DNA from: Geodermatophilus marinus
GTDB lineage: Bacteria; Actinomycetota; Actinomycetes; Mycobacteriales; Geodermatophilaceae
Direction of reading: 5' to 3'
Length of the DNA: 64,000 nt
Assembly: GCF_003428645.1 (NCBI RefSeq)
Contig: NZ_QVQH01000008.1
Span: 1 to 64,000, forward strand
Part shown: positions 38,318-62,600 of the stretch, piece by piece
How positions within the stretch are numbered: the first letter of the stretch is position 1
Layout of the letters: each line of letters starts with the position of its first letter
The notes under the pieces: model-generated
Databases searched by the model: none
Told to the model about the DNA's origin: nothing
What the model saw: the letters and a program-made list of their open reading frames with translations, nothing else
Made by a program: the position numbers and the translations under genes

Positions 38318-39703
38318 TCAGCGGGTCGCGCCACCCCCGGGCTCGTCCTTGCCGTAGCCGTAGGAGTAGCCGTACCCGTACGCCGAGGCCAGCTCGGCCT
38401 TCGGCGGGACGATGTTGAGGATGACGCCAAGTGCCTTGGCGCCGACCCGCTCCAGGGTCGCCGCGGCCTGCTGCAACTGCTCCTTGCGCGTGCTGCCGTA
38501 GCGGACGGAGAGCAGGACGCCGTCCATGTAGACGGCCAGCCCGGTGGAGTCGGCGACGGGCAGCAGCGGCGGGGCGTCGACGAGCACGAAGTCGTTGGCG
38601 GCCCGGAGCTTGTCGAGCAGGGCGAACATGTGCCTGGAGGAGAGCAGCTCCCCCGGGTTGGGCGGCGTCGGGCCGGCCGCGATGACGGAGAGCTCTCCGG
38701 TGCCGTAGCGCTGCAGCACGTCGTCGAGATCGGCCGTGTCGGCCAGGATGTTGCTGAGCCCGACCCCGCCGACCATGCCGAGGTAGCGGGTGACCTTGGG
38801 CTTACGGAGGTCGGCCTCGACGATGGTCACCCGCCGGCCAGCATCCGCGAGAGCCAGGCCGAGGTTGACCACCGCGGTGGTCTTGCCCTCGGACGGCACG
38901 GCGCTGGAGACCATGATCACCTTGGGCGGCTCGTCGACGTTGAGGAACTGAAGATTGTTGCGAAGTTGCCGGTAGTCCTCTGCCGTCCGATTCACACTGG
39001 TGCGGTCAATAACGTGGCGCCTTTCGAGCGCCTCGTCGCGCAATACCGTGCCGATGACAGGCGCACCTGCAAGCTGCACGATCTCGTCGGGATCCCTCAC
39101 GGAGCGATCGTTTCTAGCGTGAGCGACGGCCAACCCAGAGCCGCCGAGAAGCCCCAACATGAGACCCAGGGCCACATTGCGAATCACATTAGGCGAGCTC
39201 GGTTCCTCCGGCAACTGGGGCTCCTCAGTAACAGTCGCCTTCACAGGAGACTCTTCCCCGTCCTCCGAGCCCTCCAGTTCGGCCACCATTTGAGGAAAGA
39301 CTGCCCCGACCGCCTCCGCGACATCCTGTGACAGTTGAGCCGAGTCGGCCGTCACCTCCACATCCACTAGCACTGTATCCGGTACAACACTTGCGCTGAT
39401 TAACTCCTTCACGTCTTCAGGGGCCATCGCAGAGTCGAGCCTAGCGGCCACTCGAGACGCAAGCTCACCTCCCTCCACGAGGCGCGCGTAAGAGAGGACC
39501 CGCTGCTGGGAGAGCTGCCCTCCCTGGAATGCCTCTAGCGTCGACGCGGTATTCGTTGCCGAGACGAACAACTGCGTCTCGGCCGTATACGCAGGCGTCT
39601 GCAGCATACTCACGCCCAGCGCCGAAATTCCACCGCCAAGCAAACCAACAACTAGCCACCACCACCTACCCCGAAGCGCAGCAACAAACTCGCCCGCGTC
39701 CAT
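38318..39703 (-). CDS. Wzz-BY-kinase fusion (polysaccharide tyrosine autokinase), mosaic gene
   Basis: Controls EPS polymerisation and export by autophosphorylation. Wzz part: helix WWWLVVGLLGGGISALGVSML (~14-34), extracytoplasmic domain, helix VALGLMLGLLGGSGLAVAHA (~177-196). Kinase part: IMVSSAVPSEGKTTAVVNLG (Walker A, ~263-282), VTIVEADLRKP (Walker A'), FVLVDAPPLLPVADS (Walker B). It ends in a tyrosine cluster YGYGYSYGYGK, the autophosphorylation site. 461 residues. The DNA encoding residues 1 to ~254 is clearly less GC-rich than the kinase part, with the change near 38,940, so the gene appears to be recombinant. Likely dephosphorylated by one of the LMW phosphatases. Confidence 0.92.
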   Translation of the reverse strand: MDAGEFVAALRGRWWWLVVGLLGGGISALGVSMLQTPAYTAETQLFVSATNTASTLEAFQGGQLSQQRVLSYARLVEGGELASRVAARLDSAMAPEDVKELISASVVPDTVLVDVEVTADSAQLSQDVAEAVGAVFPQMVAELEGSEDGEESPVKATVTEEPQLPEEPSSPNVIRNVALGLMLGLLGGSGLAVAHARNDRSVRDPDEIVQLAGAPVIGTVLRDEALERRHVIDRTSVNRTAEDYRQLRNNLQFLNVDEPPKVIMVSSAVPSEGKTTAVVNLGLALADAGRRVTIVEADLRKPKVTRYLGMVGGVGLSNILADTADLDDVLQRYGTGELSVIAAGPTPPNPGELLSSRHMFALLDKLRAANDFVLVDAPPLLPVADSTGLAVYMDGVLLSVRYGSTRKEQLQQAAATLERVGAKALGVILNIVPPKAELASAYGYGYSYGYGKDEPGGGATR

Positions 39704-39768
39704 CTGTCATCCCGTCCTGTGTGGATTGATCGAAAGCACGTCATACCAGCTTTTAGACGGCTATCTTG

Positions 39769-41070
39769 TCACCGCCCGTGTTCGACATTTCCCCCCAGCT
39801 TCGGCGACGAAGTAGTGTTATCGCACCCGCTCCAGGAGTCGTCTGGCCAGCATGCTGCCACCGCGATCGGTGCCCACACGATTATCATAGCTGCCGACAA
39901 GACTTGGAAGGAACTAAAGGTCGCCGCGCAGGCCATGGTCGCCGCCGCCCCCACCAGCACAGCTCTTGGCACAGCACGCCGCCATGCAACGACGAGTAGT
40001 CCGACCTGAACGCCGAGGAAGCTTGCCGCCGCCATGAGGCCCATGTCGGTGGCAAGCATCACATAACCATTTTCAAAGCTGCTTGGGATGAGCCCCCTGT
40101 CCTTTAGATCGAAGCTCGAGGCATAACCGCCACCAACGAACAGGATATCTGACAGGTTTTCCCAAAAGTATGCATACGCCTCTTGCCTCAGCGAAGTGGA
40201 CCCATCGTCATCCACAAATCTAGAGATGACGACCTCACCGGCGCCAGCAAGAAGCAACGCGGAGGCAGTACCCACAATCCCGATGACTTGAGCGAGTTTT
40301 CGGTTAAGCGACTGGCGGCTGACCATTGCGCCGCCGAGTAACCCGATAAGGCCAAGGAGTGCTCCAGCCCGCGAACCGGATTGCAGAAGACCGATCAGCA
40401 GCACAGTGATCGCCCCGAGCCTTACCCAGTGCCCTCTCAGAACCATGGCTAGAGGAAGTGCGGCCACCATCAGAAGCGACAGGACGAGTGGGTGATCGAG
40501 CGTTCCACTCGTGCGCTCCGCACCGTCCCGGAAGTCAACCTGATAGAGCGCTCGAAAACCGGCGAACGGCCAGACTTCCCCAAGGACGGATTGAACGATC
40601 GACAAAAGGCCATTTACAACCGCGCAAGCCACGAAGAGCTTCAATAACCTGAGGGCGAAGCACTGATTCCGGGCGCCACCGACCGCACATATGAATAGCC
40701 AGAGTCCTCCAGCCAGGAAGTTGCCGACGAACCCCCTCGGCGACGCCTGACCGACATTCGTGAACGTCGATATTGCACCGTACGCCATAAGCCAAGCGAG
40801 CAGTACCAATAGCCACGGCGTTGATTTGAGATCGGCAATCCACCCCTGCGGACCGACGATCGCGAATATACATACGAACACGTATGTGAACCATGCAGCT
40901 GGGTGCATGTTGGTCACCGTTGCTGAAGAGAAGCTTACACCCGTGAGTAATTGACCAGCTACAGACGGAATCATAATCCACAGGACGAGGATCACCCCTG
41001 CGGCGCCCTCGGGCTTGCGTCGCAAGATCCACGCCGCCACGGCACACACCAGGAGCCAAGCGGCTAGCAA
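39769..41070 (-). CDS. Wzy-like EPS polymerase
   Basis: 433 residues with ~11 helices. LIGLLQSGSRAGALLGLIGLLGG is the polymerase/ligase motif, and the periplasmic loop near 290-340 (YAYFWENLSDILFVGGGYASSFDLKDRGLIPSSFENGYVMLATDMGLMAAASF) matches the O-antigen polymerase architecture. Lower GC than the genome around it, and part of the island. The last ~20 residues (SGCDNTTSSPKLGGNVEHGR) look unstructured. Confidence 0.85.
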   Translation of the reverse strand: MLAAWLLVCAVAAWILRRKPEGAAGVILVLWIMIPSVAGQLLTGVSFSSATVTNMHPAAWFTYVFVCIFAIVGPQGWIADLKSTPWLLVLLAWLMAYGAISTFTNVGQASPRGFVGNFLAGGLWLFICAVGGARNQCFALRLLKLFVACAVVNGLLSIVQSVLGEVWPFAGFRALYQVDFRDGAERTSGTLDHPLVLSLLMVAALPLAMVLRGHWVRLGAITVLLIGLLQSGSRAGALLGLIGLLGGAMVSRQSLNRKLAQVIGIVGTASALLLAGAGEVVISRFVDDDGSTSLRQEAYAYFWENLSDILFVGGGYASSFDLKDRGLIPSSFENGYVMLATDMGLMAAASFLGVQVGLLVVAWRRAVPRAVLVGAAATMACAATFSSFQVLSAAMIIVWAPIAVAACWPDDSWSGCDNTTSSPKLGGNVEHGR

Positions 41071-41095
41071 CGCAACACCCCCTTAGGGTCGCGCA

Positions 41096-42256
41096 TCAGT
41101 TGTTCTCACGATCGAGCACCGCCGCTACTTGCTCCAACCGAGCTTCCCAGGAGTGCCCCCTAGCCGCCTCCTGCCTTTGGCGTGCGACAGCCTCGTCGAA
41201 GCTGTCAATCTCATGCCTAACGAAGGTAGGAAAGTCGGCAGGCTCATGGATGTGCAGGCCCTCGACCGTCTCGCCTGTGAGACTCTGCAGCGGTGTCGCC
41301 ACAACCGAGAGCCCCGACGATAAGTACTCGTAGAGCTTCATCGGGTGGACGCCTGCGGTGTAGGCGTTCCTCAGGTACGGGATCAGGCCGACCATAGAGG
41401 ATGCACACTCCACCGCCAACTCTTCGGACGAAAGGTTTCCTAAATACGTGACCCGCCGATGAGACATCAGATCATTGAGTCGACTGCCGTTTCTGGTCCC
41501 GTCGACGGAGACCGGACCAGCCAGAGCTAGCTCCACGCCACTGTCAGCCAAGGCTTCAAGTATTGCGAAGTCTATTTTCGCCGGCGTGAGGTTTCCAGCA
41601 AATATTGCGCGCCTCTCACGCTCCTCGCTCCGCCGTGTCGCGGCTTCGTAAGCGGACGTATCAGCAACATTGGGCCAGAGCTGGACATCCTTGCGGCCCA
41701 GTCCTTCAAGGTGCTCTGCAACGCCTCTGCTGCTTGCAATGACTACATCCGCACGGCGAATTAGCTGCGACTCAGCCTCCAGGAGAGCTGCACTCGGCAC
41801 GCCCGGCAGCGTATGAAGGAGGTCAACCGAATGGTAGACCACTTGCCTTGCATCCGTCTCAAGGCCATAGGTAACCGGGCTAAAGGTCCATAGAGTCGAG
41901 TCTGACCACGGTAGACCAATGAGCTGTCGCCTCAGGATTGACGCATTGACTCGACGAACTAAACGACTACCGTGGAAGGGTACAACCCTGGGGCTATGAA
42001 CTTGTAGGTTCAACGGACTGTGTACAGCAGCGACTCGTCGACCAGCTTGCAAGCGTCGCGCCATGCGGCGAAGGTCGTGAATCTGGAATGTCGGCCGCCG
42101 CAATCCGAGGGAATTGATGTAGGCGACCCTGACGCCAGAATCCGCGAGACGACTTGCGATGTGTTGCTTGTTTGTCCAGACAGCCGATTCGTAGTCGGCG
42201 GTCGACAGCACAATGACGTTTCGATGAAGCACTTTAGGAAACCTCTGCTCAGCCAC
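41096..42256 (-). CDS. Glycosyltransferase, GT-B fold
   Basis: 386 residues. The N-terminal domain has 'NVIVLSTADYESAVWTNKQHIASRLADSGVRVAYINSLG', the typical opening of a family that includes teichuronic/EPS glycosyltransferases. The donor domain has AIFAGNLTPAKIDFAILEAL, MVGLIPYLRNAYTAGVHPMKLYEYLSSGLSVVATPL with Lys/Glu in the nucleotide-binding loop. No membrane segments. Lies 4 bases downstream of the Wzx gene; low-GC island. Confidence 0.85.
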   Translation of the reverse strand: MAEQRFPKVLHRNVIVLSTADYESAVWTNKQHIASRLADSGVRVAYINSLGLRRPTFQIHDLRRMARRLQAGRRVAAVHSPLNLQVHSPRVVPFHGSRLVRRVNASILRRQLIGLPWSDSTLWTFSPVTYGLETDARQVVYHSVDLLHTLPGVPSAALLEAESQLIRRADVVIASSRGVAEHLEGLGRKDVQLWPNVADTSAYEAATRRSEERERRAIFAGNLTPAKIDFAILEALADSGVELALAGPVSVDGTRNGSRLNDLMSHRRVTYLGNLSSEELAVECASSMVGLIPYLRNAYTAGVHPMKLYEYLSSGLSVVATPLQSLTGETVEGLHIHEPADFPTFVRHEIDSFDEAVARQRQEAARGHSWEARLEQVAAVLDRENN

Positions 42257-42260
42257 GCTG

Positions 42261-43586
42261 TCAGTCTTTGGATACGTGTTGCGGATGCGTCAGACGCTGC
42301 ACTACAGCCAAGGCCAGCTGGAAATCCGTACGCCGAACTCCGTAGAAGTCCTTGAAGCCATGTGGGAGTCGCTGACTCACAAAGATGATGTTGGCGTTTG
42401 CTGCGATCAAACTCCCTATGAGAGTGGCGATGGCGGCGCCGACAGCCCCCAGGGCGGGCGCCAAGAGAAACAACAGGATGATGTTGACTGTCGCGGCTGC
42501 CACCATGGACGTGCTGCGTAGCCCAGGCCTTCCCGACGCGCTCAAAATGGCACCAGCGATCGAACCCGGAACGCCGGTGACACCGGCCAAGAGCAGTATG
42601 GCAGCGGGCACTACTGAAGCCGCGAACTCCGGCCCGAAGACAAGTGGTAACCAGAGCGTCATCGTACTGGCAAGGACGACTCCAAGGACCAATGAGAGGG
42701 CCGCAGATAGGCGCGCGGCGACAATTGCCCTTTCACCGGCAGTTCCGCCCTTGGCCTCAGTCGCATACAGAACGTCGCGCACCGCGTTGTTGAAGATGAG
42801 CGCGAGGTCAGCGACGTTGACCGCAACAACGTAGAAGCCAAGTTCGGCTAGAGAGGACAGAGGTGCCATCAGCACTTGGTCCAGCCGTGATAGCAGGACT
42901 CCTGACAACGTTCCAATCCATATGCGTAGCCCAAAGTGCAGTATGCTACCCCATTTAGTCCCCTGTGTTTCCGGCGAGTCGTCAATCACCGAGTCTGGGA
43001 CTGGACGCAGGTAGGGCATGCCAGCGATTATCGGTGCTGCCGCAATCACGGCTACGGCACTCGTGACTGTCAGCACGTCGAGGGCGGCCATAGCGCCGAT
43101 ACCGCCAAGTCGGACCAGCGCCCCAATGTACTTCTCTGCGTTGATGCGACCAAAAAGGCCCAAGCCTGCTGCCCGGCCGCGCTGCACTCCGACTAGTAGG
43201 GCGGGAGTCAAGGCCAGCGCCGTGACTACCGTCAGCCTTTCAACGGTCGAGTCGCCGCCGGAAGTATATGAAGCAGCTGCTACGACGGAAAGAGTTGAGG
43301 CCACTCCAGACACGAGCACGATGAGGCTTCCCCTCCAGACGCTCGGTCGGCTTTGGCCTGGAGTCCTCGCGACCACATACGTTACCGCCTCGGGAATGCC
43401 AAGAAGAGCTGCGGTAGTCATCAGAACGAGTGGTGCTGTAGCCGCGGCCACGGCGCCTCGGCCGTCCGGACCCAAGACTTGGGCCAGTATGGGAGCCGTT
43501 GCGATGGCCGCGATCGGGTTGGCTAGATTTGCAAGTCCCGAGGCCACGAGGACGTGCGCCAGAGATCGGCGTCCATTGCTTGCCAA
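42261..43586 (-). CDS. Wzx-like oligosaccharide flippase
   Basis: About 441 residues and 12-14 helices, opening SLAHVLVASGLANLANPIAAIATAPILAQVLGPDGRGAVAAATAPL, the usual first pair of helices with 'LGPxGRG'. TTG 43586 is preferred: AGGAG is eight bases upstream. A TTG at 43616 in the same frame would add ten residues. Translocates the lipid-linked repeat unit for the polymerase at 39769. Low-GC island. Confidence 0.85.
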   Translation of the reverse strand: MASNGRRSLAHVLVASGLANLANPIAAIATAPILAQVLGPDGRGAVAAATAPLVLMTTAALLGIPEAVTYVVARTPGQSRPSVWRGSLIVLVSGVASTLSVVAAASYTSGGDSTVERLTVVTALALTPALLVGVQRGRAAGLGLFGRINAEKYIGALVRLGGIGAMAALDVLTVTSAVAVIAAAPIIAGMPYLRPVPDSVIDDSPETQGTKWGSILHFGLRIWIGTLSGVLLSRLDQVLMAPLSSLAELGFYVVAVNVADLALIFNNAVRDVLYATEAKGGTAGERAIVAARLSAALSLVLGVVLASTMTLWLPLVFGPEFAASVVPAAILLLAGVTGVPGSIAGAILSASGRPGLRSTSMVAAATVNIILLFLLAPALGAVGAAIATLIGSLIAANANIIFVSQRLPHGFKDFYGVRRTDFQLALAVVQRLTHPQHVSKD

Positions 43587-43714
43587 CTGACCATCTCCTA
43601 CTCCTGGGACGCCCAATCACCTTAATGGAGCGCGGATGACCTAAGGCGTCGGGCAGCATGGCTACCGACTAGTACTAATCCCAGCCAGACGCCAGATTCA
43701 GACCTAATGGGCCA

Positions 43715-44788
43715 CTATGCCATGTCGCTAGCGACGTCGCTTAATATTGCGGAGAGCTGGCGCAAGAAGCTGTCGGAGCTGAAGCGTGCAGCGTTTGCCC
43801 GGATGGCAGCGGCAGGAAGGTCAGGGAAGTTGCGGAGTGTAGCGCGTATCGCCTCGGGAGTTGGAGACGGGATGAAGACTCCAGAAGCACCCTCTTGGGT
43901 GCTATCCAGGAAGCCGCCGGCTCGCAGGACGGCCACTGGAGTTCCGAAAGCGTTCGCCTCGATCGGGGTGAGTCCAAAGTCTTCGTATGAAACGCTAACC
44001 AATGCACGTGCATTCGCGTATAGCCATCGCAGTTGTGCGTCACTGACGATGCCTAGAGTCCGTACATGGGTCGGCACTTCGCGCCCCGTAAAGGACGCTC
44101 CAACCACCACGACGAGCTCTGAGAGCCCAGCGGTCGCTTCGATGATTGCGTCTACGTTCTTGTAGCCGCGACCACGAGCAACCACGAGCCAGTAGCCCGC
44201 ATCTATTCCGGTGACAGGATCCTTTTCCGCGTCAGGGTCGACCATGACAGGCGGATGTATGACTTCAGGTTCAACTCCATACGTCTCACGGATTCTTGAG
44301 GCTACGCTAGTGGAGTTGGCGATATAGCGATCGACGGAAGAGGCGCGCTGCGCATCCCAACGCACCAACAGTCGGCGACATGGCTCCCAAAATCGTTGAG
44401 CAACTCGTGAGGGTATATATTCATGCGGCTGGTAGAGCCAGCGGGCGGGGTTGTGACAGTAGGCGATCAGTCTCGCGCCTTCTGGCTTTCCAATTGCATG
44501 TGCCCAACCCGTTGTGCTGGCTAGAATCACGTCCACCGGTTGTACATGCAGCTGCCTCCATGCAGCGGGCAGGAGCGGGAACGCGGCGCGCGGATCCCTC
44601 CTGAAACGCTCCACGCTCTGCAGGAAGGACGTCCGCACATCGACGCAGGCGAATTCGGGGAATGTGCCATGGGGATTGTATACGCTGGTATACAGTGGGG
44701 CATCCGCAAACTCCATTGCGAGCGCAAGTGCAACTCGTTCAGCGCCGCCACGCTGAGTAAGATAGTCGTGCGCCAATGCAAGACGCAT
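43715..44788 (-). CDS. GT4-family glycosyltransferase
   Basis: 357 residues. MRLALAHDYLTQRGGAERVALALAMEF is the classic opening with the acceptor-loop RGGAER. RLIAYCHNPARWLYQPHEYI and IANSTSVASRIRETYGVEPEVIHPPV lead into the donor domain, where YWLVVARGRGYKNVDAIIEA and ALVSVSYEDFGLTPIEANAFGTPVAVLRAGG hold the E-x7-E motif. Complete. Low-GC island. Confidence 0.9.
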   Translation of the reverse strand: MRLALAHDYLTQRGGAERVALALAMEFADAPLYTSVYNPHGTFPEFACVDVRTSFLQSVERFRRDPRAAFPLLPAAWRQLHVQPVDVILASTTGWAHAIGKPEGARLIAYCHNPARWLYQPHEYIPSRVAQRFWEPCRRLLVRWDAQRASSVDRYIANSTSVASRIRETYGVEPEVIHPPVMVDPDAEKDPVTGIDAGYWLVVARGRGYKNVDAIIEATAGLSELVVVVGASFTGREVPTHVRTLGIVSDAQLRWLYANARALVSVSYEDFGLTPIEANAFGTPVAVLRAGGFLDSTQEGASGVFIPSPTPEAIRATLRNFPDLPAAAIRANAARFSSDSFLRQLSAILSDVASDMA

Positions 44789-45091
44789 TAACCCTCCCTA
44801 GATGCACCAACCCCGCACACGGCTCTTGATCGCCGGGGCGCTGTGCCGCTACCGAAGGATCCCACGACTGGCGGCTCACTCGTCGCGCGGGGTGCCGCGG
44901 TGTGCCCGCTTCGGCGGGATCAGGCGGGGAAATACGAGATAGAGGCGTAGCGAGCACCTTGATCCCTGGCATTGGGGATCGGTTACGGTGGAAGCCGAAC
45001 ACTCCCTGATGCCTGTGGCGTCAAGCGTGCGAGAAGTCTACCTCCGACTTGCCAGCCGGCTGCCGGACAGAAGCGACGCAAGGAGCATAAA
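44789..45091. other. Divergent intergenic region inside the island
   Basis: About 300 bases between the leftward GT4 gene and the rightward glycosyltransferase at 45092. The left half is GC-rich and the right half less so. A frame open from 44972 joins the downstream gene but has no ribosome site and no motif. Presumably promoters for both directions; none picked out with confidence. Confidence 0.4.
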
Positions 45092-45982
45092 TTGCGGCGT
45101 AGTGCCTGGGGATTGTGGGTGTTGAGATTGTGGCGGCCTGTCGTCCGCCGGGCGATCGCTTACGGTGCTTCCGGCGCCTTGCGGTTGCGCAACCATGTCT
45201 CGTCGTCTCCGGTGATCGATTCCGAGTCGAACGTTGTGGTATCGCTCACCACTCACGGAAAGAGAATCCATACCGTGTCTTTGGCCATCGAGTCGATAGC
45301 GCGCGGCTGGAAGCGGCCGTCGAGGGTTATGCTCTTCGTCGACGCTGAGACCCTGGGCACGGGATTACCTGACGGTTTGAAGCGACTGGCGGGCCGGGGG
45401 CTGGAGGTGTGCGTCGCCGACGATGTCGGCCCGCACACCAAATACTTTCCTTACGTTCAGAGCGTCGGTCACCACGCTTCCCCGCTCGTCACAGCCGATG
45501 ATGACGTCATCTACCCGCGCCATTGGTTACAGGGGCTAGTCTGCGCACACGATGAACGCCCGACGGACATTGTGTGTCACCGTGCCCGGTTCGTACAACT
45601 CACTTCTGAGGGCTTGGTGCCGTATCGGGAATGGCCCGCGGTCCAGTCGACCGAATCTCGACTGGGCCATATGGCGCTAGGGGTATCGGGAGTGCTGTAT
45701 CCGCCCAGCTACCTGAACCGCTTGAAAGCCGAGGGGGCCGCCTTTCTGATGGTTTGCCCGCGGGCCGATGACTTGTGGCTTCACCGTTGCGCCGTCACCT
45801 TCGGCGTAAGGACGTCCCAGGTGAGCAGGGTCGCTCAAGACTTCCCAACGATCTACCGCGGGCAAGATATCGGCCTGCGGCAGCGGAACGTTGCGGGCGG
45901 CATGAACGACGTTCAGATACGGAAAACGTATACGTCGGAGGTCCTTAGATACTTAAGTGAAGAGCGGTTTGGGCAGGAGTAG
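45092..45982 (+). CDS. Glycosyltransferase-like protein, GT-A type
   Basis: TTG 45092 with AAGGAG seven bases upstream. 296 residues: VVVSLTTHGKRIHTVSLAIESIARG opens a GT-A-like domain, and SPLVTADDDVIYPRHWLQGLV supplies the acidic D-D-D metal site. AFLMVCPRADDLWLHRCAVTFGVRTSQV resembles the 'DD.W' acceptor-side motif of capsule glycosyltransferases. Family not fixed. The only rightward gene in the low-GC island, and its last gene before the PP2C remnant. Confidence 0.7.
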   Translation: MRRSAWGLWVLRLWRPVVRRAIAYGASGALRLRNHVSSSPVIDSESNVVVSLTTHGKRIHTVSLAIESIARGWKRPSRVMLFVDAETLGTGLPDGLKRLAGRGLEVCVADDVGPHTKYFPYVQSVGHHASPLVTADDDVIYPRHWLQGLVCAHDERPTDIVCHRARFVQLTSEGLVPYREWPAVQSTESRLGHMALGVSGVLYPPSYLNRLKAEGAAFLMVCPRADDLWLHRCAVTFGVRTSQVSRVAQDFPTIYRGQDIGLRQRNVAGGMNDVQIRKTYTSEVLRYLSEERFGQE

Positions 45983-46018
45983 GTCGGTAACGATAGTTGA
46001 GTCCGCCCGTATTCGAGC

Positions 46019-46734
46019 CTATCCAGCTTGGCGGACGACCACGGTGACGTTTTCACAGACGCCGTCGGCATCTGCCTTCGGCACGAGTGCGTCGGCGAGC
46101 GCCAGCGGGGGGCGGCCTTAGGGGCCAGGTGCTCGGCGATCCGCGCCGGCCCTACCTCGTTGGTCAGCCCGTCCGAGCAGGCCAGGAAGACCTCCCCCGG
46201 GACGACGGGCAGCAGCACGACGTCCGCCTGGTTCGACGCCCCCACCCCCAGCGCCCGGGTGATGATGTGCCGCTGCGGGTGGCTGGCCGCACCGGCGTCG
46301 GAGAGGTGCCCGGCGTCGATCAGCTCCTGCACCACCGAGTGGTCGGTGGACAGCTGCTCCAGCACGTCGCCCGAGAGCCGGTAGACCCGCGAGTCGCCCA
46401 CGTGGAAGACCGCCCACTGCGACCCGGCCCCCTCCTCGACCAGCGCCACCCCAGCCACCGTGGACCCCCCACCACCGGGGGCGTCCCCGCTGGCGGCGCG
46501 GATCTCCCCGTCGGCCCGCCGCAGCGCCAGCCGCACCCGCTCGACGCTGGTCGCCGGCCCGCCCGCCAGCGCGCCCAGCGCCTCCACCACGGCCTCGGCC
46601 GCCGCCGCCCCGCCGGCGTGCCCGCCCATCCCGTCGGCCACGGCGAACACCGGCGGCGTCGCCACCGCCCGGTCCTGGTTCTCCTCCCGGGCACCCAGCG
46701 CGGTCGCCGCCCCCCAGGTCAGCTCGACCTGCAT
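46019..46734 (-). pseudogene. PP2C-type Ser/Thr phosphatase, frameshifted copy
   Basis: Nearly identical to the 48852-49571 gene over residues 1 to ~200 (ATG 46734; ENQDR, VADGMGGHAGG, STDHSVVQ, ACSDGLTNEVGPARIAE). After codon ~201 the sequence diverges, and the frame is lost in a G-rich run around 46,105-46,115. In the shifted frame the expected ending is still readable: LADALVPKADADGVCENVTVVV, stopping at 46019. In the real frame the C-terminal metal-binding 'DN' block is lost and translation would run to 45913 with an unrelated tail. The diverged 3' end has the base composition of the adjacent island. Confidence 0.7.
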
Positions 46735-46793
46735 CCACACTCCAGTCCACGCACGTCGACGACGGTCCGCCCGCGGGGAAGGCAGGCGGGCCG
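46131..46793. repeat. 663-bp direct duplication, copy A
   Basis: Matches 48968-49630 base for base at an offset of 2837, with one difference noticed (T against C in the CC(T/C)ACCTCG stretch near 46,153). It covers most of the PP2C gene and about 60 bases upstream. Sequence on both sides is unrelated or diverged, so the edges are sharp. Confidence 0.9.
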
Positions 46794-48851: not shown

Positions 48852-49571
48852 CTACGGTCCGGCGACCGCCACCACGACGACCGTGACGTTGTCGCGGGCG
48901 CCGTCGGCGTCCGCCTCGGTCACCAGCGCCTCCGCGATCTCCTGCGGCCCGGCACCGCAGGCCAGCAGCTCGGCGATCCGCGCCGGCCCCACCTCGTTGG
49001 TCAGCCCGTCCGAGCAGGCCAGGAAGACCTCCCCCGGGACGACGGGCAGCAGCACGACGTCCGCCTGGTTCGACGCCCCCACCCCCAGCGCCCGGGTGAT
49101 GATGTGCCGCTGCGGGTGGCTGGCCGCACCGGCGTCGGAGAGGTGCCCGGCGTCGATCAGCTCCTGCACCACCGAGTGGTCGGTGGACAGCTGCTCCAGC
49201 ACGTCGCCCGAGAGCCGGTAGACCCGCGAGTCGCCCACGTGGAAGACCGCCCACTGCGACCCGGCCCCCTCCTCGACCAGCGCCACCCCAGCCACCGTGG
49301 ACCCCCCACCACCGGGGGCGTCCCCGCTGGCGGCGCGGATCTCCCCGTCGGCCCGCCGCAGCGCCAGCCGCACCCGCTCGACGCTGGTCGCCGGCCCGCC
49401 CGCCAGCGCGCCCAGCGCCTCCACCACGGCCTCGGCCGCCGCCGCCCCGCCGGCGTGCCCGCCCATCCCGTCGGCCACGGCGAACACCGGCGGCGTCGCC
49501 ACCGCCCGGTCCTGGTTCTCCTCCCGGGCACCCAGCGCGGTCGCCGCCCCCCAGGTCAGCTCGACCTGCAT
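48852..49571 (-). CDS. PP2C-type Ser/Thr protein phosphatase, intact copy
   Basis: 239 residues from ATG 49571 (GGAG five bases upstream). Metal and catalytic motifs are all present: EENQDR, VADGMGGHAGG, GGGGSTVAGV, FHVGDSRVYRL, LSTDHSVVQELIDAG, ITRALGVG, ACSDGLTNEV and the terminal ARDNVTVVVV. A free-standing cytoplasmic phosphatase that reverses Hanks-type kinase phosphorylation. No kinase gene is nearby. Compare the broken copy at 46019. Confidence 0.92.
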   Translation of the reverse strand: MQVELTWGAATALGAREENQDRAVATPPVFAVADGMGGHAGGAAAAEAVVEALGALAGGPATSVERVRLALRRADGEIRAASGDAPGGGGSTVAGVALVEEGAGSQWAVFHVGDSRVYRLSGDVLEQLSTDHSVVQELIDAGHLSDAGAASHPQRHIITRALGVGASNQADVVLLPVVPGEVFLACSDGLTNEVGPARIAELLACGAGPQEIAEALVTEADADGARDNVTVVVVAVAGP

Positions 49572-49630
49572 CCACACTCCAGTCCACGCACGTCGACGAC
49601 GGTCCGCCCGCGGGGAAGGCAGGCGGGCCG
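48968..49630. repeat. 663-bp direct duplication, copy B
   Basis: Partner of 46131-46793. In this copy the homologous gene continues in frame to a full C-terminus, so copy B is likely the original or has been the donor in gene conversion. The two copies bracket a VapBC pair and the pentapeptide-repeat gene, which recombination between them would delete. Confidence 0.9.
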
Positions 49631-55520: not shown

Positions 55521-56612
55521 TCAGCGCACCAGGGAGCCGGTGTCCTCCCGCGCCGCGATCCGCTCCCGCTGCGGGACGACGGTGTACTTCGGGTCGCGGG
55601 CGCTGGCCATCCCGGCCTCGTAGACCCCGAACCGGGTGAGCAGCGAGCCGGCCGCCAGCAGCGCCCCGGCGGCCACCGCACCGGCCCGCCGGCGCCCGGC
55701 CAGCAGGGTCAGCCCCGCGCCGGCAGCGGTGCACGCCCGCGCCGCCTTCAGGTAGCGCCCGGCCTTGCCCTCGTGGAAGGGCTCGCTGACGACACCGTGG
55801 CCGTTCTCCACCCGGCGCATCACCGCCAGCTCCAGCGCGGCCCCGGCCACCGCGGTCCCCCGCGACGGGCCGGCCTCCGCGACCGGGGTGAACGCCATCG
55901 TCAGGCCGCCCCCGGCGGCCATCGCCGAGCCGGCGAACACGAACGGCAGCTCGCGGCCGGGCTCCTTCCACGACGGGACGGCGGTGTTGGCGAACAGGAC
56001 CGCGGTGTAGGTCGCCATCGGCCCGCCGAAGAGGGCCGACACCGCCGAGCCGAACCGCTTCAGCCGCGGGAACCAGCCCAGCAGCTCCACCGCCGCCGTG
56101 GCACCGGCCGCCGCGCTGAACGGCGCCAGGATGTAGGAGCCCACCGACAGCGGGGACGTCGGCTTGAGCACCCGCAGCATGTGCAGGAACCGCTCGGGCC
56201 GGCCCAGGTCGTGGATCAGCCAGCCCACCGACAGCACCGACGCGGCGCCGGCCGTCAGGCGGCCCGACCGCGCCAGCGCCGGGCGACCGGTCGCGTCGGC
56301 CAGGGACCCGAGGGCGGCCGACGTCCCGGCCGCGCCCCCGAGGAACAGGTACAGCGGCACGTCCGGCGTCTTCCACACCGGTTCCTTGATGATCGGGCGC
56401 CCGTAGTAGGAGCCGAACTCCGCGTCGGCCACCACCGGCGCGCCGTCGGCCGCCCCGGGCCGCCGGCCCAGCCGCTCGCTGCCGCCGCGGCCGCGCCTGC
56501 GGCGCTCGCGGTCGTGCGCCGACGGCCCGTCGGCCCGCCGCCAGCCACCCCCCGGCTGCGCCACACCCCCCGGCTGCGCCCCGCCGCCCGGCTGCGCCGT
56601 GCCCCCGGTCAC
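55521..56612 (-). CDS. NrfD/PsrC-like membrane subunit of formate dehydrogenase
   Basis: Passes electrons from the Fe-S subunit to the quinone pool. GTG 56612 overlaps the fdhB stop. The first ~70 residues are Gly/Pro/Arg-rich with two GG(x)AQPGG repeats, probably disordered. SYYGRPIIKEPVWKTPDVPLYLFLGGAAGTSAALGSLAD then begins the NrfD domain of about eight helices (LIHDLGRPERFLHMLRVLKPTSPLSVGSYIL is diagnostic). The C-terminus ARDPKYTVVPQRERI is typical of actinobacterial NrfD next to FdhA/B. 363 residues. Last gene of the operon. Confidence 0.88.
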   Translation of the reverse strand: MTGGTAQPGGGAQPGGVAQPGGGWRRADGPSAHDRERRRRGRGGSERLGRRPGAADGAPVVADAEFGSYYGRPIIKEPVWKTPDVPLYLFLGGAAGTSAALGSLADATGRPALARSGRLTAGAASVLSVGWLIHDLGRPERFLHMLRVLKPTSPLSVGSYILAPFSAAAGATAAVELLGWFPRLKRFGSAVSALFGGPMATYTAVLFANTAVPSWKEPGRELPFVFAGSAMAAGGGLTMAFTPVAEAGPSRGTAVAGAALELAVMRRVENGHGVVSEPFHEGKAGRYLKAARACTAAGAGLTLLAGRRRAGAVAAGALLAAGSLLTRFGVYEAGMASARDPKYTVVPQRERIAAREDTGSLVR

Positions 56613-57658
56613 CGGGGCCGCCGCGAGCCGAGCACCGCCGAAGCGATGACGCCCAGCATCACCGCCGCGGCCGCCCCGGCCGACTTCCACAGCGCCGGCA
56701 GGTCACGGGTGGGCACGACCGGGTCCGGCGGGAGGCCGTAGACCTCCGGCTCGTCGAGCAGGAGGAAGAACGCCCCGGCGCCGCCGACGCCGTCCCCCTC
56801 GTCGCGCCCGTAGAGCCGGGCGGTCTGCACGCCCTGCTCCTTCAGCGTGGCCAGCCGGGCGTCGGCGCGGGCCTGCAGCTCGTCGAGGTTGCCGAACTGG
56901 ATGGACTCCGTGGGGCAGGCCGTCGCGCAGGCGGGCATGAGCCCGTCGAGGGTGCGGTCGTAGCAGAGGGTGCACTTGAACACCCGCCCGTCGTCCTTGC
57001 GCTGGTCGATGACCCCGTAGGGGCAGGCCGGCACGCAGTAGCCGCAGCCGTTGCAGATGTCGCCCTGGACGACGACCGTGCCGAACTCGGTGCGGAACAG
57101 CGCCCCCGTCGGGCAGACGTCGAGGCAGCCGGCGTGCGTGCAGTGCTTGCACACGTCCGAGCTCATCAGCCAGCGGATCTCGCGGTCGGCCGAGCGCCCC
57201 GTCTGCGGGTCGAACTCGGCCAGCGCCTCGGCGTTGAGCACGCTGTCCTGCCGGGTCTGCGAGCCGTCGGCGAGCCCGTGCGCCCCCGGGGTGCCGCCGG
57301 CGCCGGGCAGCCCGACGCCCGGCATCGGCAGGTCGACCGGGCGGCTCTGCTCGACGAAGGCCACGTGCCGCCAGGAGTTGGCGCCCAGCATGCCGGTGTT
57401 GTCGTAGGACATGCCGGTCAGGCCCATCCGGTCGCGGACACCGTCCGCGTCGTCCATCGGCAGCATGTTCCACTCCTTGCACGCCACCTCGCAGGCCTTG
57501 CAGCCGATGCACACCGAGGTGTCGGTGAAGAAGCCGACCCGCGCCGGGTGGTCGCCGTCGTACCCGGCGTCCCCCGCGACGTCCGGCAGCGGCCCGTAGA
57601 GCCGGTTGGCCGGGTCGTTCCCGGAGAAGGCCGGGCTGGCCGAGCTGACGGTCGTCAC
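56609..57658 (-). CDS. Formate dehydrogenase Fe-S (beta) subunit
   Basis: Sixteen cysteines for four 4Fe-4S clusters: C50-C53-C56-C60 (CIGCKACEVAC), C170-C173-C178-C182 (CKHCTHAGCLDVC), C202-C205-C208-C212 (CNGCGYCVPAC) and C229-C232-C244-C248. It relays electrons from FdhA to the NrfD-like subunit. A C-terminal helix (ALWKSAGAAAAVMLGVIASAVLG) anchors it to the membrane, as in FdnH-type subunits. GTG 57658 overlaps the fdhA stop (GTGA). 349 residues. A Gly/Pro loop (residues ~110-135) is an insertion. Confidence 0.93.
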   Translation of the reverse strand: MTTVSSASPAFSGNDPANRLYGPLPDVAGDAGYDGDHPARVGFFTDTSVCIGCKACEVACKEWNMLPMDDADGVRDRMGLTGMSYDNTGMLGANSWRHVAFVEQSRPVDLPMPGVGLPGAGGTPGAHGLADGSQTRQDSVLNAEALAEFDPQTGRSADREIRWLMSSDVCKHCTHAGCLDVCPTGALFRTEFGTVVVQGDICNGCGYCVPACPYGVIDQRKDDGRVFKCTLCYDRTLDGLMPACATACPTESIQFGNLDELQARADARLATLKEQGVQTARLYGRDEGDGVGGAGAFFLLLDEPEVYGLPPDPVVPTRDLPALWKSAGAAAAVMLGVIASAVLGSRRPR

Positions 57659-60600
57659 ATGCCCTCCACGGTCTCGACCGGCGCGCGCCCGTTCAGCGGC
57701 ACCAGCCCGCTGGGCACGCCGGCCCGCCGCCGGTAGCCCTCGACGAACTCGACCAGCGCCGTCCCGCGCGGGCGCCGGCCCGGCCGGATGTCGCAGCTGG
57801 CCACCTTGGACTCCTGGATGTGCACGTTCGGGTCCATGACGACGCCGAACAGGTCGTTGGCCGCGTCGCCGGTGGAGATGCCCCGCTCACCCCAGTGGTA
57901 CGGGACGCCGATCTGGTGGATCAGCCGCCCGTCGGTGGTCTTCAGCGGGCGCATCCGCTCGGTGACCAGCACCTTGGCCTCGATCGCGCTGCGCGCGCTG
58001 ACCAGCGTCGCCCAGCCGCCGTTCTCCAGCCCGCGCTCCTCGGCCAGCTGCGGGCTGACCTCGACGAAGAACTCCGGCTGCAGCTCCGACAGGTAGGGCA
58101 GGGTGCGGCTCATCCCGCCGGCGGTGTGGTGCTCGGTGAGCCGGTAGGTGGTGAACACGTACGGGTAGACCCGCGCGCCCGGGTCGTCGCCGGAGGGGTT
58201 GAGCCGGTTCCACGGCGCGTGGATCTCCTCGCGCCCCGGGTTGGACTGCTGCTTGTACAGCAGGTTGGTCATCGGCGACTCGGCCGGCTCGTAGTGCGTC
58301 GGCATCGGGCCGTCGGCCAGGCCCGCCGGCGCGTACAGCCAGGCCTTCCCGTCGTCCTGCATGATGAACGGGTCGGCGCCGCCGATGCCGTCCTGCGCCT
58401 TCGCGCCCTCCGGCGGCACGTAGTCCGGCCGCTTGCCCTTCTCGAAGTCGGGCACGTCGACGCCGGTCCACTCGCCGGCGTCCTCGTCCCACCACACGTA
58501 CTTCTTGCGCTCGCTCCACGGCCGGCCCTCGGGGTCGGCGCTGGCGCGGTTGTAGAGGGTGCGGCGGTTGAGCGGCCACGCCCAGCCCCACTCGGCGGCC
58601 ACGTAGTCCTGCTCCCGGCCGGGCTTGCGGCGGGCCGACTGGTTCACCTCGTCGGCGTAGACGCCGGTGTAGATCCAGCAGCCGCCGGTGGTCGACCCGT
58701 CGTCCTTCATCTCCGTGTAGGAGGAGAGGGTGCGCCCGTCGGGGCCGACGCCGTTGATCTCCCGCAGCACCGCCTCGGCGCTGGGCTCGGCGTGCTCGCC
58801 GTGGGTCGGGTAGTCCCAGACCAGGTCCAGCAGCGGGCGGTCGCGCGGGTCGGTGGAGTCCTTCAGCTTCTCCCTGAGCCGGCGGCCGAGGTGGAAGTAG
58901 AACCACAGGTCGCTGCGGCACTCGCCCGGCGGCTCGACGGCCTTGTGCCGCCACTGGAGCAGCCGCTGGGTCTGGGTGAACGTGCCCTCCTTCTCCACGT
59001 GCGTGGCGGCGGGCATGAAGAACACCTCGGTCGGGACCTGGTCGGTGACCATCTCCCCGGTGGCGATCTCCGGGCCGTCCTGCCAGAACGTGGCCGACTC
59101 GATCATCTGCAGGTCGCGGACGACGAGCCACTCCAGGTTGGCCAGCCCGAAGCGCTGCATGCGCCCGTTGGCGTGGCCCACCGCCGGGTTCTCCCCGACG
59201 AGGAAGTAGCCGGGCACCTTGCCCTCGATCATGTCGGCGACCGTGCGGTAGGAGCTGTGGTCGCCGCTGATCCGCGGCATGTAGTCGAAGCAGAAGTCGT
59301 TCTCCGGCTGCGCCGCGTCGCCCCACCAGGACTTCAGCAGGCTGACGGTGTAGGCGCGCATGTTGCCCCAGAAGCCGATCCGCTGGTCGCCGAGCGCGCA
59401 GTAGTCGTCGAGCGACTGGTGCTGCTTGGCGTGCGGCATCGGCAGGTAGCCGGGGAGGATGTTGAACAGCGTCGGGATGTCCGTGGACCCCTGGATGCTG
59501 GCGTGCCCCCGCAGCGCGAGGATCCCCCCGCCCGGCCGGCCCATGTTGCCCAGCAGCGCCTGCAGGATCGAGCAGGTGCGGATGTACTGCACGCCCACGG
59601 TGTGGTGCGTCCAGCCCACCGAGTACACCCACGCCGTCGTCCGGTCCCGGCCGCTGTTGGCCGTGATCGCCTCGGCGACCTCGAGGAACACCTCGGGCTC
59701 GACGCCGCAGATCTCGCCGACCAGCTCCGGGGTGTAGCGGGAGAAGTGCCGCTTGAGGACGTTGATCACGCAGCGCGGGTGCTGCAGGGTCTCGTCGCGC
59801 TCAGGCTTCGGGACCGCCCCGGAGCCCCCGCTGCCGGCGGTCTCGAACTGGTCGGCGCTGCGGACGTCGACGTCCTCACCGGACTGCTCCTGCATCCGGT
59901 CGGCCCGGCCGCCGTCGTTGGGGGACTTGACCTGACCGCCGGGCTGCGCGGTGGAGCGCTGGCCGGCCGCCGCCGGGGTGTCCACGCCGTCGTACTGCCA
60001 GCTGGACTCGTCGTACTTGCGGGTCTCCGGGTCGAAGCCGGAGAACAGGCCGTCGAGGTCCTCGGTGTCCTGGAAGTCCTCCCGGACCAGCGTCGCGGCG
60101 TTGGTGTAGGCGAGCACGTACTCCCGGAAGTACAGCTCGTTCTGCAGCACGTGGTTGATCAGCCCGCCGAGGAAGGCGATGTCGGTGCCGGCGCGCAGCG
60201 GGACGTGCCGGTCGGCCAGCGCGCTGGTGCGGGTGAACCGCGGGTCGACGTGGATGACCTTCGCGCCCCGGTCCTTGGCCTCCATCACCCACTGGAAGCC
60301 GACCGGGTGGCACTCGGCCATGTTCGAACCCTCGATGACGATGCAGTCGGAGTTCGCGAGGTCCTGCTGGAAGCTGGTGGCGCCGCCGCGCCCGAACGTG
60401 GTCCCCAGACCGGGGACCGTGGCGGAGTGCTATATGCGGGCCTGGTTCTCGATCTGGATGGCCCCCATGGCGCTGTACAGCTTCTTCATGAGGTAGTTCT
60501 CCTCGTTGTCGAGGGTCGCCCCTCCGAGGCTCGCTATCCCCATGGTGCGGTTGAGCGTCCGGCCGTCCTCGTCCTCGGCCTCCCAGCGCTTGCGGCGGGC

Positions 60601-60993
60601 GTCGAGCACGCGGTCGGCGATCATGTCCATCGCCGTGTCGAGGTCGAGGTCCTCCCACTCCGTCCCGTACGGGCGGCGGTAGCGGACCTCGGTGACCCGG
60701 CTCGGGCTGGTCACCAGCTGCTTGCTGGCGCTGCCCTTGGGGCACAGCCGGCCGCGGCTGATCGGCGAGTCCGGGTCGCCCTCGATCTGCAGGATCTGCT
60801 CGTCCTTGACGTACACGCGCTGGCCGCAGCCCACGGCGCAGTACGGGCAGACGCTCTGGACCACGCGGTCGGCGGTCGCCGTCCGGCTGGTCAGCTGCTC
60901 GGTGCCCTTGTTGCGCGCGGCCCTGCCGCGGCCGAGCGGGTCCGGTCCGGTGAGCTGCCGGTACACCGGCCACGCGTCGAGCCAGGTCTTCAC
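57655..60993 (-). CDS. Formate dehydrogenase catalytic subunit with UAG-encoded selenocysteine
   Basis: Mo/W-bisPGD enzyme oxidising formate to CO2. The reading frame is interrupted once, by TAG at 60430-60432 (codon 188). The context NQARI-[UAG]-HSATVPGLGTTFGRGG is exactly where known formate dehydrogenases have selenocysteine (E. coli FdnG: NQARV-U-HGPTV). Read through, it encodes 1112 residues. C49-C52-C56-C84 (CPYCAVGC...CPKGS) bind a 4Fe-4S cluster. EGSNMAECHPVGFQWVMEAK, HVDPRFTRTS and the C-terminal DIRPGRRPRGTALVEF follow. No Tat signal, so it faces the cytoplasm. A low-complexity insert of ~70 residues lies before HPRCVINVLKRHFSRYTPE. A SECIS-like hairpin directly follows the UAG. First of three overlapping genes. 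Confidence 0.93.
60396..60432 (-). promoter_or_regulatory. UAG Sec codon and bacterial SECIS-type hairpin
   Basis: Read on the minus strand, UAG (60432-60430) is followed by a hairpin. The stem GUCCCC (60417-60412) pairs with GGGGAC (60406-60401), with apical loop GGUCU (60411-60407). The stem extends through ACG (60420-60418) with CGU (60398-60396) past a two-base CA bulge. The loop starts 18 bases after the stop codon. In E. coli fdhF the loop has the same GGUCU and, by my count, the same offset; there the G and U contact SelB. Confidence 0.88.
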
Positions 60994-61140: not shown

Positions 61141-61214
61141 CGGTGATCATGGGGATCTGGCCGGCCGCCCCGGCGTGTCGGCGCGTGTCCCCGGCAAGAC
61201 GCCCATGATCACCG
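61141..61214. repeat. Dispersed palindromic repeat, copy 1
   Basis: Begins GGTGATCATGGG (61142-61153) and ends CCCATGATCACC (61202-61213), perfect inverted 12-mers around a ~48-bp core of the form GCCGGCCGCCCCGGCGTGTC... Two further copies and a lone end lie within 1.4 kb. It is in the 418-base gene-free stretch 60994-61411 upstream of fdhA. Confidence 0.85.
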
Positions 61215-61243
61215 CGGCGACGTGGCGGCGGGGCGCGGCCCGG

Positions 61244-61317
61244 CGGTGATCATGGGGATGTGGCCGGCCGCCCCGGCGTGTCGGCGCGTGTCCCAGGCAA
61301 GACGCCCATGATCACCG
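61244..61317. repeat. Dispersed palindromic repeat, copy 2
   Basis: Same orientation as copy 1 and nearly identical (differences such as GGGGATG for GGGGATC and TCCCAGG for TCCCCGG). Terminal GGTGATCATGGG at 61245-61256 and CCCATGATCACC at 61305-61316. Confidence 0.85.
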
Positions 61318-62287: not shown

Positions 62288-62600
62288 CCGGCGACCGTGC
62301 TGGCCCGGAGCCGCCCACAGCGGTGGCGACGACGACCTGTGGACGCCGCTGCCGGGTGTGGGCGCCCCCCCCCCCCCCGGCCGCGGTGATCATGGGCTTC
62401 TTGCCGGGGACACGCGCGGACACGCCCAGGCGGCCGGCCAGACGCCCATGATCACCGCTGGGGAAGTCGCCCATGATCACCGCCGGGGGGTGGCGGGCGG
62501 GTGAACGGTCGGTGCGGACCTGGGAACCAGGGTGGTCCCGGGGATCCTGGTGGGGGTGAATCCCCTGGGTCCTGTCACCCCCGGGCCCGATACTGGGTCG
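62288..62600. other. Gene-free stretch with C14 run and palindromic repeats
   Basis: About 310 bases between the DUF559 and MBL genes. It holds a run of 14 C (62365-62378), palindromic repeat copy 3 (62385-62456) and a lone repeat end CCCATGATCACC (62470-62481). The run sits ~80 bases upstream of the DUF559 start. Confidence 0.7.
62385..62456. repeat. Dispersed palindromic repeat, copy 3 (inverted core)
   Basis: Terminal GGTGATCATGGG (62385-62396) and CCCATGATCACC (62445-62456). The core CTTGCCGGGGACACGCGC...GGCGGCCGGCCAG is the reverse complement of the copy 1 core, so this copy is inserted in the opposite orientation. Confidence 0.85.

What the first reader, a model, noticed from the sequence alone, without database searches (positions are those of the whole stretch)
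60430..60432. UAG at the selenocysteine codon of formate dehydrogenase
The only in-frame interruption of an otherwise intact 1113-codon fdhA is TAG, and it sits exactly at the position that is Sec (UGA) or Cys in homologues (NQARI-*-HSATV). Downstream codons stay in frame with normal composition, and two co-transcribed overlapping genes follow, so decay is unlikely. UAG-directed Sec insertion has been reported for Geodermatophilus and Blastococcus, in which tRNA-Sec carries a CUA anticodon. This locus looks like a natural example of that codon reassignment.
Basis: partly seen in the sequence, partly recalled or inferred. Interest (0 to 1): 0.95.

Follow-up and report, generated by a model that had tools for sequence, protein, structure and literature searches.

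The report
Two selenocysteine codons in one bacterium
A soil bacterium spells the rare amino acid selenocysteine with the stop codon UAG in its formate dehydrogenase, as its family is already known to do, but this genome also carries a second, foreign-looking selenocysteine tRNA beside a gene that appears to use UGA, which would give one organism two selenocysteine codons.

Summary
In detail: fdhA (60993-57655, minus) has one internal stop, TAG at codon 188 (60432-60430), aligned with the Sec position of solved formate dehydrogenases. The genome (a Geodermatophilus, by contig-length matching) has tRNA-Sec(CUA) beside selA, selB and selD, and a SECIS hairpin whose loop (GGUCU) starts 18 nt after the UAG. 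An FdhA match spanning this codon with an in-frame TAG occurs in 98 of 112 family genomes (position checked in 31), so this is conserved recoding, not decay. It is published for the family (PMC5330540, citing Mukai 2016): alone, a new member of a known kind.

Not expected: the genome has a second tRNA-Sec, with the usual UCA anticodon, 315 nt from an AhpD-like gene whose in-frame UGA replaces the second Cys of CxxC (Cys in 16 of 16 homologues examined) and is followed by a hairpin with a related loop (AGUUU). The pair sits on a lower-GC, insertion-sequence-rich contig end. Only one selA and one selB were found. Best reading: one SelA/SelB/SelD set serves two Sec codons, UAG (native) and UGA (acquired). 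Of 108 family genomes with a strong tRNA-Sec match, only this one has both anticodons. Misassembly, contamination or a dead relic are not excluded.

The parts
57655..60993 (-). fdhA, formate dehydrogenase catalytic subunit, 1112 residues when UAG is read as Sec
   Evidence: NCBIfam NF041513 formate_DH_Act 1983.6 bits; PDB 1KQF, 1H0H
60430..60432 (-). UAG codon 188 at the Sec position
60400..60418 (-). SECIS hairpin, 7-bp stem, loop GGUCU starting 18 nt after the UAG
   Evidence: pairing conserved in 99.2% of cells, one pair C-G/G-C/G-U
56609..57658 (-). fdhB-like 4Fe-4S electron-transfer subunit
   Evidence: Pfam Fer4_11 and others
55521..56690 (-). NrfD-type membrane subunit (start uncertain)
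   Evidence: Pfam PF03916, 38.3 bits

Best explanation
fdhA is a selenoprotein gene in which UAG, not UGA, is the selenocysteine codon. SerRS charges tRNA-Sec(CUA) with serine, SelA converts it to Sec with selenophosphate from SelD, and SelB delivers it to the UAG because the GGUCU hairpin just downstream recruits SelB. The same genome also carries a distinct tRNA-Sec(UCA) next to an AhpD-like (peroxidase-related, TIGR01926) gene with an in-frame UGA at the second Cys of CxxC and its own SECIS-like hairpin. The best reading is that this pair was acquired horizontally and is served by the one resident SelA/SelB/SelD set, so the organism has two Sec codons separated only by anticodon. Shown here: genes, anticodons, codon positions, hairpins, conservation. 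Inferred: charging, delivery and incorporation, and the horizontal origin.
For: UAG part: tRNA-Sec model 65.3 bits with anticodon CUA; selC, selA and selB in a row with selD divergent; 98 of 112 family genomes have an FdhA match spanning codon 188 with an in-frame TAG (read from the listing; position checked in 31 loci); of 108 family genomes with a tRNA-Sec match of 60 bits or more, 100 have CUA only, 7 UCA only, and this one both; 38 of 80 named selA loci have CUA, 37 of them labelled Geodermatophilaceae and one 'UNVERIFIED_ORG: Bacillus', whereas 12 of 12 fdhA sites found in other actinobacterial loci have TGA at the same codon. SECIS: 12 of 19 distinct sequences change both sides of pair 18-30. 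UGA part: tRNA-Sec(UCA) 81.8 bits; promoter-like site just upstream (1 found in the region, 0.2 expected); UGA aligns with Cys in 16 of 16 homologues examined; TIGR01926 with CxxU is a listed selenoprotein family (PMC13188914, table passage); the AGUUU loop also follows the UGA of an Arthrobacter plasmid fdhA; a scan of 168 kb (3% of the genome) for a stop plus RGUYU hairpin inside a long open frame gave exactly these two sites.
Against: No protein or selenium data. The hairpins are not unusually stable for their composition (z -0.78 and -0.44); the fdhA covariation rests on one pair, and two of the five measures (pairs changed on both sides, further pair types) are no higher than in shuffles. 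The loop pattern was taken from the two sites themselves. The UCA tRNA and the UGA gene lie in the first 2.2 kb of a contig, near several insertion sequences, and no other genome with the pair was found, so misassembly, contamination or a dead relic remains possible. The downstream half of the UGA gene lacks the usual third-position GC excess (0.70/0.43/0.65 after, 0.63/0.52/0.71 before).
Confidence: 0.75

Rival explanations
1. UAG-Sec in fdhA is real, but the tRNA-Sec(UCA)/UGA-ahpD pair is contamination or a misassembly at the end of contig C17, so the organism has only one Sec codon.
For: The pair lies at C17:1169-2157, at the contig end, in 60-63% GC sequence, with an ISAs1 fragment on one side and IS30, IS3-like and IS21 transposases further on; only this genome of 108 with a strong tRNA-Sec match has both anticodons; the two attempts to place a C17 gene in the genus gave no answer.
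Against: The assembly is listed as 100% complete, 0.02% contaminated; from 7.5 kb on the contig runs at 70-79% GC; a 93-bp repeat of C17 is 91% identical to one on the window's contig; the window itself has tracts of 57-61% GC. The tetranucleotide correlation (0.832 for C17:1-6000) is compatible but does not separate genera well.
Confidence: 0.2
2. The UCA tRNA and UGA gene are truly in the genome but are a recent, non-working import: the resident SelA/SelB do not use that tRNA or that hairpin.
For: The UCA tRNA is only 67% identical to the resident CUA tRNA; its hairpin loop (AGUUU) differs from the resident one (GGUCU).
Against: The tRNA keeps G73, an encoded CCA and its stems, with 2 non-standard model pairs against 5 in the resident tRNA; the ahpD frame is open on both sides of the UGA and matches its family on both sides; both loops fit R-G-U-Y-U, and each occurs after an fdhA UGA in other actinobacteria (GGUCU in 11, AGUUU in 1 of 12).
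Confidence: 0.25
3. The UAG is a plain nonsense mutation and fdhA is a pseudogene.
For: None beyond the stop itself.
Against: UAG at the catalytic Sec position in 30 of 30 fetched loci, this one included, an in-frame TAG in a spanning match in 98 of 112 family genomes, with a matching tRNA, sel genes and a conserved hairpin.
Confidence: 0.01
4. The CUA tRNA is tRNA-Pyl and residue 188 is pyrrolysine.
For: ARAGORN labels the gene tRNA-Pyl, presumably because of its anticodon.
Against: It matches the tRNA-Sec covariance model end to end above the gathering score, and it sits beside selA and selB. A search for pylS was not made.
Confidence: 0.01

Closest known systems
UAG-directed Sec insertion in Geodermatophilaceae (Mukai et al. 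2016, doi 10.1002/anie.201511657, not held, known here only through citing papers and recall; Santesmasses et al. 2017, PMC5330540, passages and section 11 read)
   Same: tRNA-Sec with anticodon CUA and UAG at the Sec codon of formate dehydrogenase, same family
   Different: The passages read in PMC5330540 mention FDH, UGSC and AhpC genes for these genomes but no UCA tRNA-Sec or UGA selenoprotein beside the CUA one
AhpD-like selenoprotein, TIGR01926, CxxU (table passage of PMC13188914)
   Same: family and CxxU position of the UGA gene on contig C17
   Different: here it stands beside its own tRNA-Sec(UCA), in a genome whose other Sec codon is UAG
Genomes with two tRNA-Sec genes (Table 3 of PMC5330540, section 11 read)
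   Same: two non-identical, structurally intact tRNA-Sec genes
   Different: no anticodon difference is mentioned for those in the section read; here the two anticodons read different stop codons
sel-fdh operons on actinobacterial plasmids (Arthrobacter pYA7-1a NZ_CP110115, Tsukamurella plasmid NZ_LR134459)
   Same: a tRNA gene similar to tRNA-Sec(UCA) on plasmid DNA, in a selB-selA-(tRNA)-selD-nrfD-4Fe4S-fdh order
   Different: they carry the whole machinery, with UGA in fdh (read only for Arthrobacter); the C17 segment carries only a tRNA and one candidate selenoprotein

Membership tests
UAG-Sec decoding system of Geodermatophilaceae | tRNA-Sec with anticodon CUA | tested here: met
UAG-Sec decoding system of Geodermatophilaceae | selA, selB, selD present | tested here: met
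   SelA 406 bits, SelB 268.8 bits and SelD 379.8 bits
UAG-Sec decoding system of Geodermatophilaceae | UAG at the Sec position of FDH | tested here: met
UAG-Sec decoding system of Geodermatophilaceae | SECIS directly downstream | tested here: met
   (covariation on one pair)
UAG-Sec decoding system of Geodermatophilaceae | selenium incorporated in the protein | not testable with these tools
   needs 75Se labelling or mass spectrometry
Canonical UGA-Sec system (second module) | tRNA-Sec with anticodon UCA, intact fold, G73 | tested here: met
   81.8 bits
Canonical UGA-Sec system (second module) | in-frame UGA where homologues have Cys | tested here: met
   16 of 16 homologues examined have Cys
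Canonical UGA-Sec system (second module) | SECIS directly downstream | tested here: inconclusive
   hairpin with loop AGUUU (or GUU) 16-17 nt after UGA; a single sequence, so no covariation test; energy not unusual
Canonical UGA-Sec system (second module) | own selA/selB | tested here: not met
   one SelA match in the genome, one SelB match over the cut-off; the next SelB-model match (206 bits) is EF-Tu
Pyrrolysine system | tRNA-Pyl fold | tested here: not met
   the CUA tRNA matches the tRNA-Sec model; cmscan reported no other family there at gathering scores
Pyrrolysine system | pylS present | not tested
   no genome search left

The most novel reading that the evidence does not exclude
A natural genome with two Sec codons at once: UAG for its native selenoprotein and UGA for a horizontally acquired 'tRNA-Sec plus selenoprotein' cassette that borrows the resident SelA, SelB and SelD. 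Sec would then be a two-codon amino acid here, and a codon reassignment could begin or be undone by importing one tRNA gene, without touching SelB or the SECIS.
Probability: 0.55. Interest if true: 0.78.

Novelty: new variant of a known kind. Interest (0 to 1): 0.6.

Why it matters
UAG-Sec itself is known. A genome in the ambiguous state, with both anticodons and both codons, would be a living intermediate for how a recoded codon moves between UGA and UAG, and a natural test of whether one SelB can serve two tRNA-Sec species of different sequence. It also warns annotators: in the 38 named loci with a CUA tRNA-Sec, ARAGORN calls it tRNA-Pyl, and under the standard code both selenoprotein genes look truncated.

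Tried and rejected
Decay (rejected by conservation). Pyrrolysine (rejected by the tRNA fold and neighbours; pylS not searched). A phage or viral source of the UGA cassette: no match in phages, none in viral contigs by protein or by one exact tRNA pattern. A plasmid source: only weak AhpD relatives (327 records, all under 60% identity), and matches to the tRNA part only in 5 plasmid records. A second copy of the cassette: the AhpD-like protein has no close relative in 112 family genomes (best 40%) or in 394 class genomes (two others at E 1e-20, 34-37%); for the tRNA, 203 of 396 phylum genomes have a match, the best other one covering 81 of 95 nt at 87% next to selA and the start of selB, and none of the 19 best tRNA loci holds an AhpD relative within about 1.5 kb. 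UAG or UGA in AhpC-type proteins of this genome: 11 matches, no stop inside; UGSC proteins were not searched. A second SelB: the next match is EF-Tu. Tetranucleotide composition was too blunt to place contig C17. A third tRNA-Sec match over the cut-off (48.2 bits, C70:88204) is a tRNA-Ser by ARAGORN.

Errors of mine: one search aligned the AhpD protein with an arbitrary stretch and was discarded; a chance minus-strand hit replaced the true row of L161, so its pair table holds 22 true rows and one false one, and I used the corrected set of 30 instead.

The listings are cut at the bottom, and one search used stricter filters that lose some copies (for example G072:C280, found by pattern; it is UCA), so a second tRNA-Sec in another genome could have been missed.

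Full report
Observation. The minus-strand frame 60993-57655 encodes 1112 residues of a formate dehydrogenase catalytic subunit with one internal stop, TAG, at codon 188 (60432-60430). It matches NCBIfam NF041513 (formate_DH_Act) with 1983.6 bits. Codon-position GC is nearly the same on both sides of the stop. In the alignment to PDB 1KQF and 1H0H, residue 188 falls on the X of those chains, which is the Sec residue (that X stands for Sec is my knowledge). Downstream lie a 4Fe-4S protein and an NrfD-type protein.

Machinery. The whole genome (5,227,744 bases, 71 contigs, listed as 100% complete, 0.02% contaminated) has a tRNA-Sec at C11:15836-15927 with anticodon CUA (65.3 bits; ARAGORN calls it tRNA-Pyl). 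Directly beside it are selA (406 bits) and selB (268.8 bits), and selD runs the other way (379.8 bits). SelA has one match in the genome; SelB has one match over its cut-off, and the next one (206 bits) is EF-Tu.

SECIS. A 7-bp stem carries the loop GGUCU, which starts 18 nt after the UAG. On 30 fdhA sites (19 distinct), 99.2% of pair cells are standard, and pair 18-30 is C-G, G-U or G-C, with 12 cells changed on both sides against a shuffled mean of 2.6, and 0 in five of six slid controls and 1 in the other. Four of seven pairs never vary, so the covariation rests on one pair, and the number of pairs changed on both sides (1) and of further pair types (3) is no higher than in shuffles. The hairpin is not exceptional in energy for its composition (z -0.78).

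Relatives. By my reading of the listing (which is cut at the bottom), 98 of 112 family genomes have an FdhA match spanning codon 188 with an in-frame TAG. Of the other 14, nine are in genera g5-g7 (no or only weak matches), four (G034, G035, G094, G096) have fragments or weak matches that do not span the codon or are not listed, and one (G079) has split copies, of which one piece spans the codon with no stop and another holds two TGA. Two of the 98 (G009, G029) also show a TGA; in G009 it is the likely normal end of the gene, in G029 its place was not examined, but codon 188 is TAG. In 30 of 30 fetched loci the TAG is at the same codon. Of 80 named selA loci, 38 have a CUA tRNA-Sec, 28 a UCA one and 14 none found within the stretch held. 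The 38 are labelled Geodermatophilus, Blastococcus, Modestobacter, Klenkia, Trujillonella, Goekera or Geodermatophilaceae, apart from one labelled 'UNVERIFIED_ORG: Bacillus sp.'. Twelve fdhA sites found in other actinobacterial loci all have TGA at this codon and an RGUYU loop sequence at the same place; in 9 of 12 the predicted fold of 48 nt shows the same hairpin, in one it closes to a 3-nt loop, in two it folds otherwise. So codon and anticodon changed in this family while the hairpin sequence stayed much the same. I read the anticodon of every tRNA-Sec match of 60 bits or more listed (110 matches in 108 of 112 genomes): 100 genomes have CUA only, 7 (in genera g5-g7) UCA only, and the window's genome has both. 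This fits a switch after the split from g5-g7 (inference). The window's genome is a Geodermatophilus by contig-length identity of its genus mates with named records.

The unexpected part. The genome holds a second tRNA-Sec, C17:1169-1263 (minus), anticodon UCA, 81.8 bits, with G73, encoded CCA and fewer broken model pairs (2) than the CUA gene (5). It is 67% identical to the resident CUA tRNA and at most 77% to the other distinct tRNA-Sec sequences collected (58 distinct in all); the best other match in 396 genomes of the phylum covers 81 nt at 87% and lies beside selA. A promoter-like site lies just upstream (1 found in the region, 0.2 expected). After a gap of 315 nt, on the other strand, is a 192-residue AhpD-like gene (C17:1579-2157) with an in-frame TGA at codon 98, motif NRCFY-U-MESH. 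It matches TIGR01926 (112.6 bits, cut-off 81.8) across the TGA, and the TGA aligns with Cys in 16 of 16 homologues examined, the fetched ones among matches in 84 family genomes and two class genomes. TIGR01926 with CxxU is a listed selenoprotein family (table passage of PMC13188914). A hairpin follows, ACGCAG-AGUUU-CUGCGU, loop 16 nt after the codon (z -0.44); the same AGUUU sequence follows the UGA of an Arthrobacter plasmid fdhA. A scan of 168 kb (3%) of this genome for a TAG or TGA with an RGUYU hairpin of at least 6 bp 14-23 nt downstream, inside a frame open for 60 codons each way, gave exactly two sites: fdhA and this gene. The pattern was taken from these two sites, so this shows specificity, not independent discovery.

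How it probably works. One SelA, SelB and SelD set serves both tRNAs; the codon is chosen by the anticodon alone, because a UCA anticodon should not read UAG, nor CUA UGA (inference from pairing rules). The cassette lies in 60-63% GC sequence near an ISAs1 fragment and IS30, IS3-like and IS21 transposases, which suggests horizontal gain.

What speaks against it. The cassette is at a contig end, so misassembly or contamination is the main doubt; from 7.5 kb on the contig is high-GC DNA (70-79%) and one 93-bp repeat is shared with the window's contig, but my attempts to place a core gene of the contig gave no answer. No second genome with the cassette was found. The third-position GC signal is weak in the downstream half of the gene. 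There are no expression data.

Literature. PMC5330540 (passages, and section 11 in full) reports three Geodermatophilaceae genomes with CUA tRNA-Sec, names FDHs, UGSC-motif selenoproteins and a UAG-containing AhpC gene, and cites Mukai et al. 2016, which is not held and which I know only through citations and recall, including its 75Se or mass-spectrometry confirmation. Passages of PMC10778597, PMC7609411, PMC8124441, PMC13188914 and PMC8762117 were also read; PMC10778597 and PMC8124441 mention UAG as a Sec codon in some species. The listings of searches showed no paper that I could recognise as describing UCA and CUA tRNA-Sec in one genome; since Mukai 2016 was not readable and most listed papers were not opened, I cannot say that no such case is in print.

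Verdict. The new element is a probable two-codon selenocysteine genome.

Noticed in passing
G000 contig C17:1169-2157 (L009): tRNA-Sec(UCA) beside an AhpD-like gene with in-frame UGA at a CxxC Cys, in a genome that otherwise uses UAG for Sec.
   Followed up: yes
window 57655-60993: This fdhA is closer to copies in genera g9 (Modestobacter by contig-length match), g12 and g4 (81-82% identity) than to the listed ones of its own genus (77-79%), which hints at exchange of the operon between genera.
   Followed up: no
window 25507, 61145-61313, 62388-62478: Seven copies (three plus, four minus strand, up to 3 mismatches) of an interspersed repeat with the core GATCATGGGCGTCTTGCC, clustered just upstream of fdhA; none at this stringency on C17, L010 or L011.
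   Followed up: partly
window 45913-46740 and 48852-49577 (minus): Two near-identical PP2C phosphatase reading frames in duplicated segments; the first copy has a different C-terminal end.
   Followed up: no
window 39000-46000: Tract of 57-61% GC in a 72% GC window, with glycosyltransferase-like frames: a possible acquired polysaccharide island (by eye, not searched).
   Followed up: no
L218 (NZ_CP110115) and L219 (NZ_LR134459): selB-selA-(tRNA)-selD-nrfD-4Fe4S-fdh sets on an Arthrobacter plasmid typed as conjugative and a Tsukamurella plasmid: selenocysteine use can travel as one block.
   Followed up: partly
G079 contigs C4 and C12 (genus g8, Klenkia by contig-length match): Split fdhA copies; one piece spans codon 188 with no stop and another holds two TGA: possibly a decaying or Cys-type copy.
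   Followed up: no
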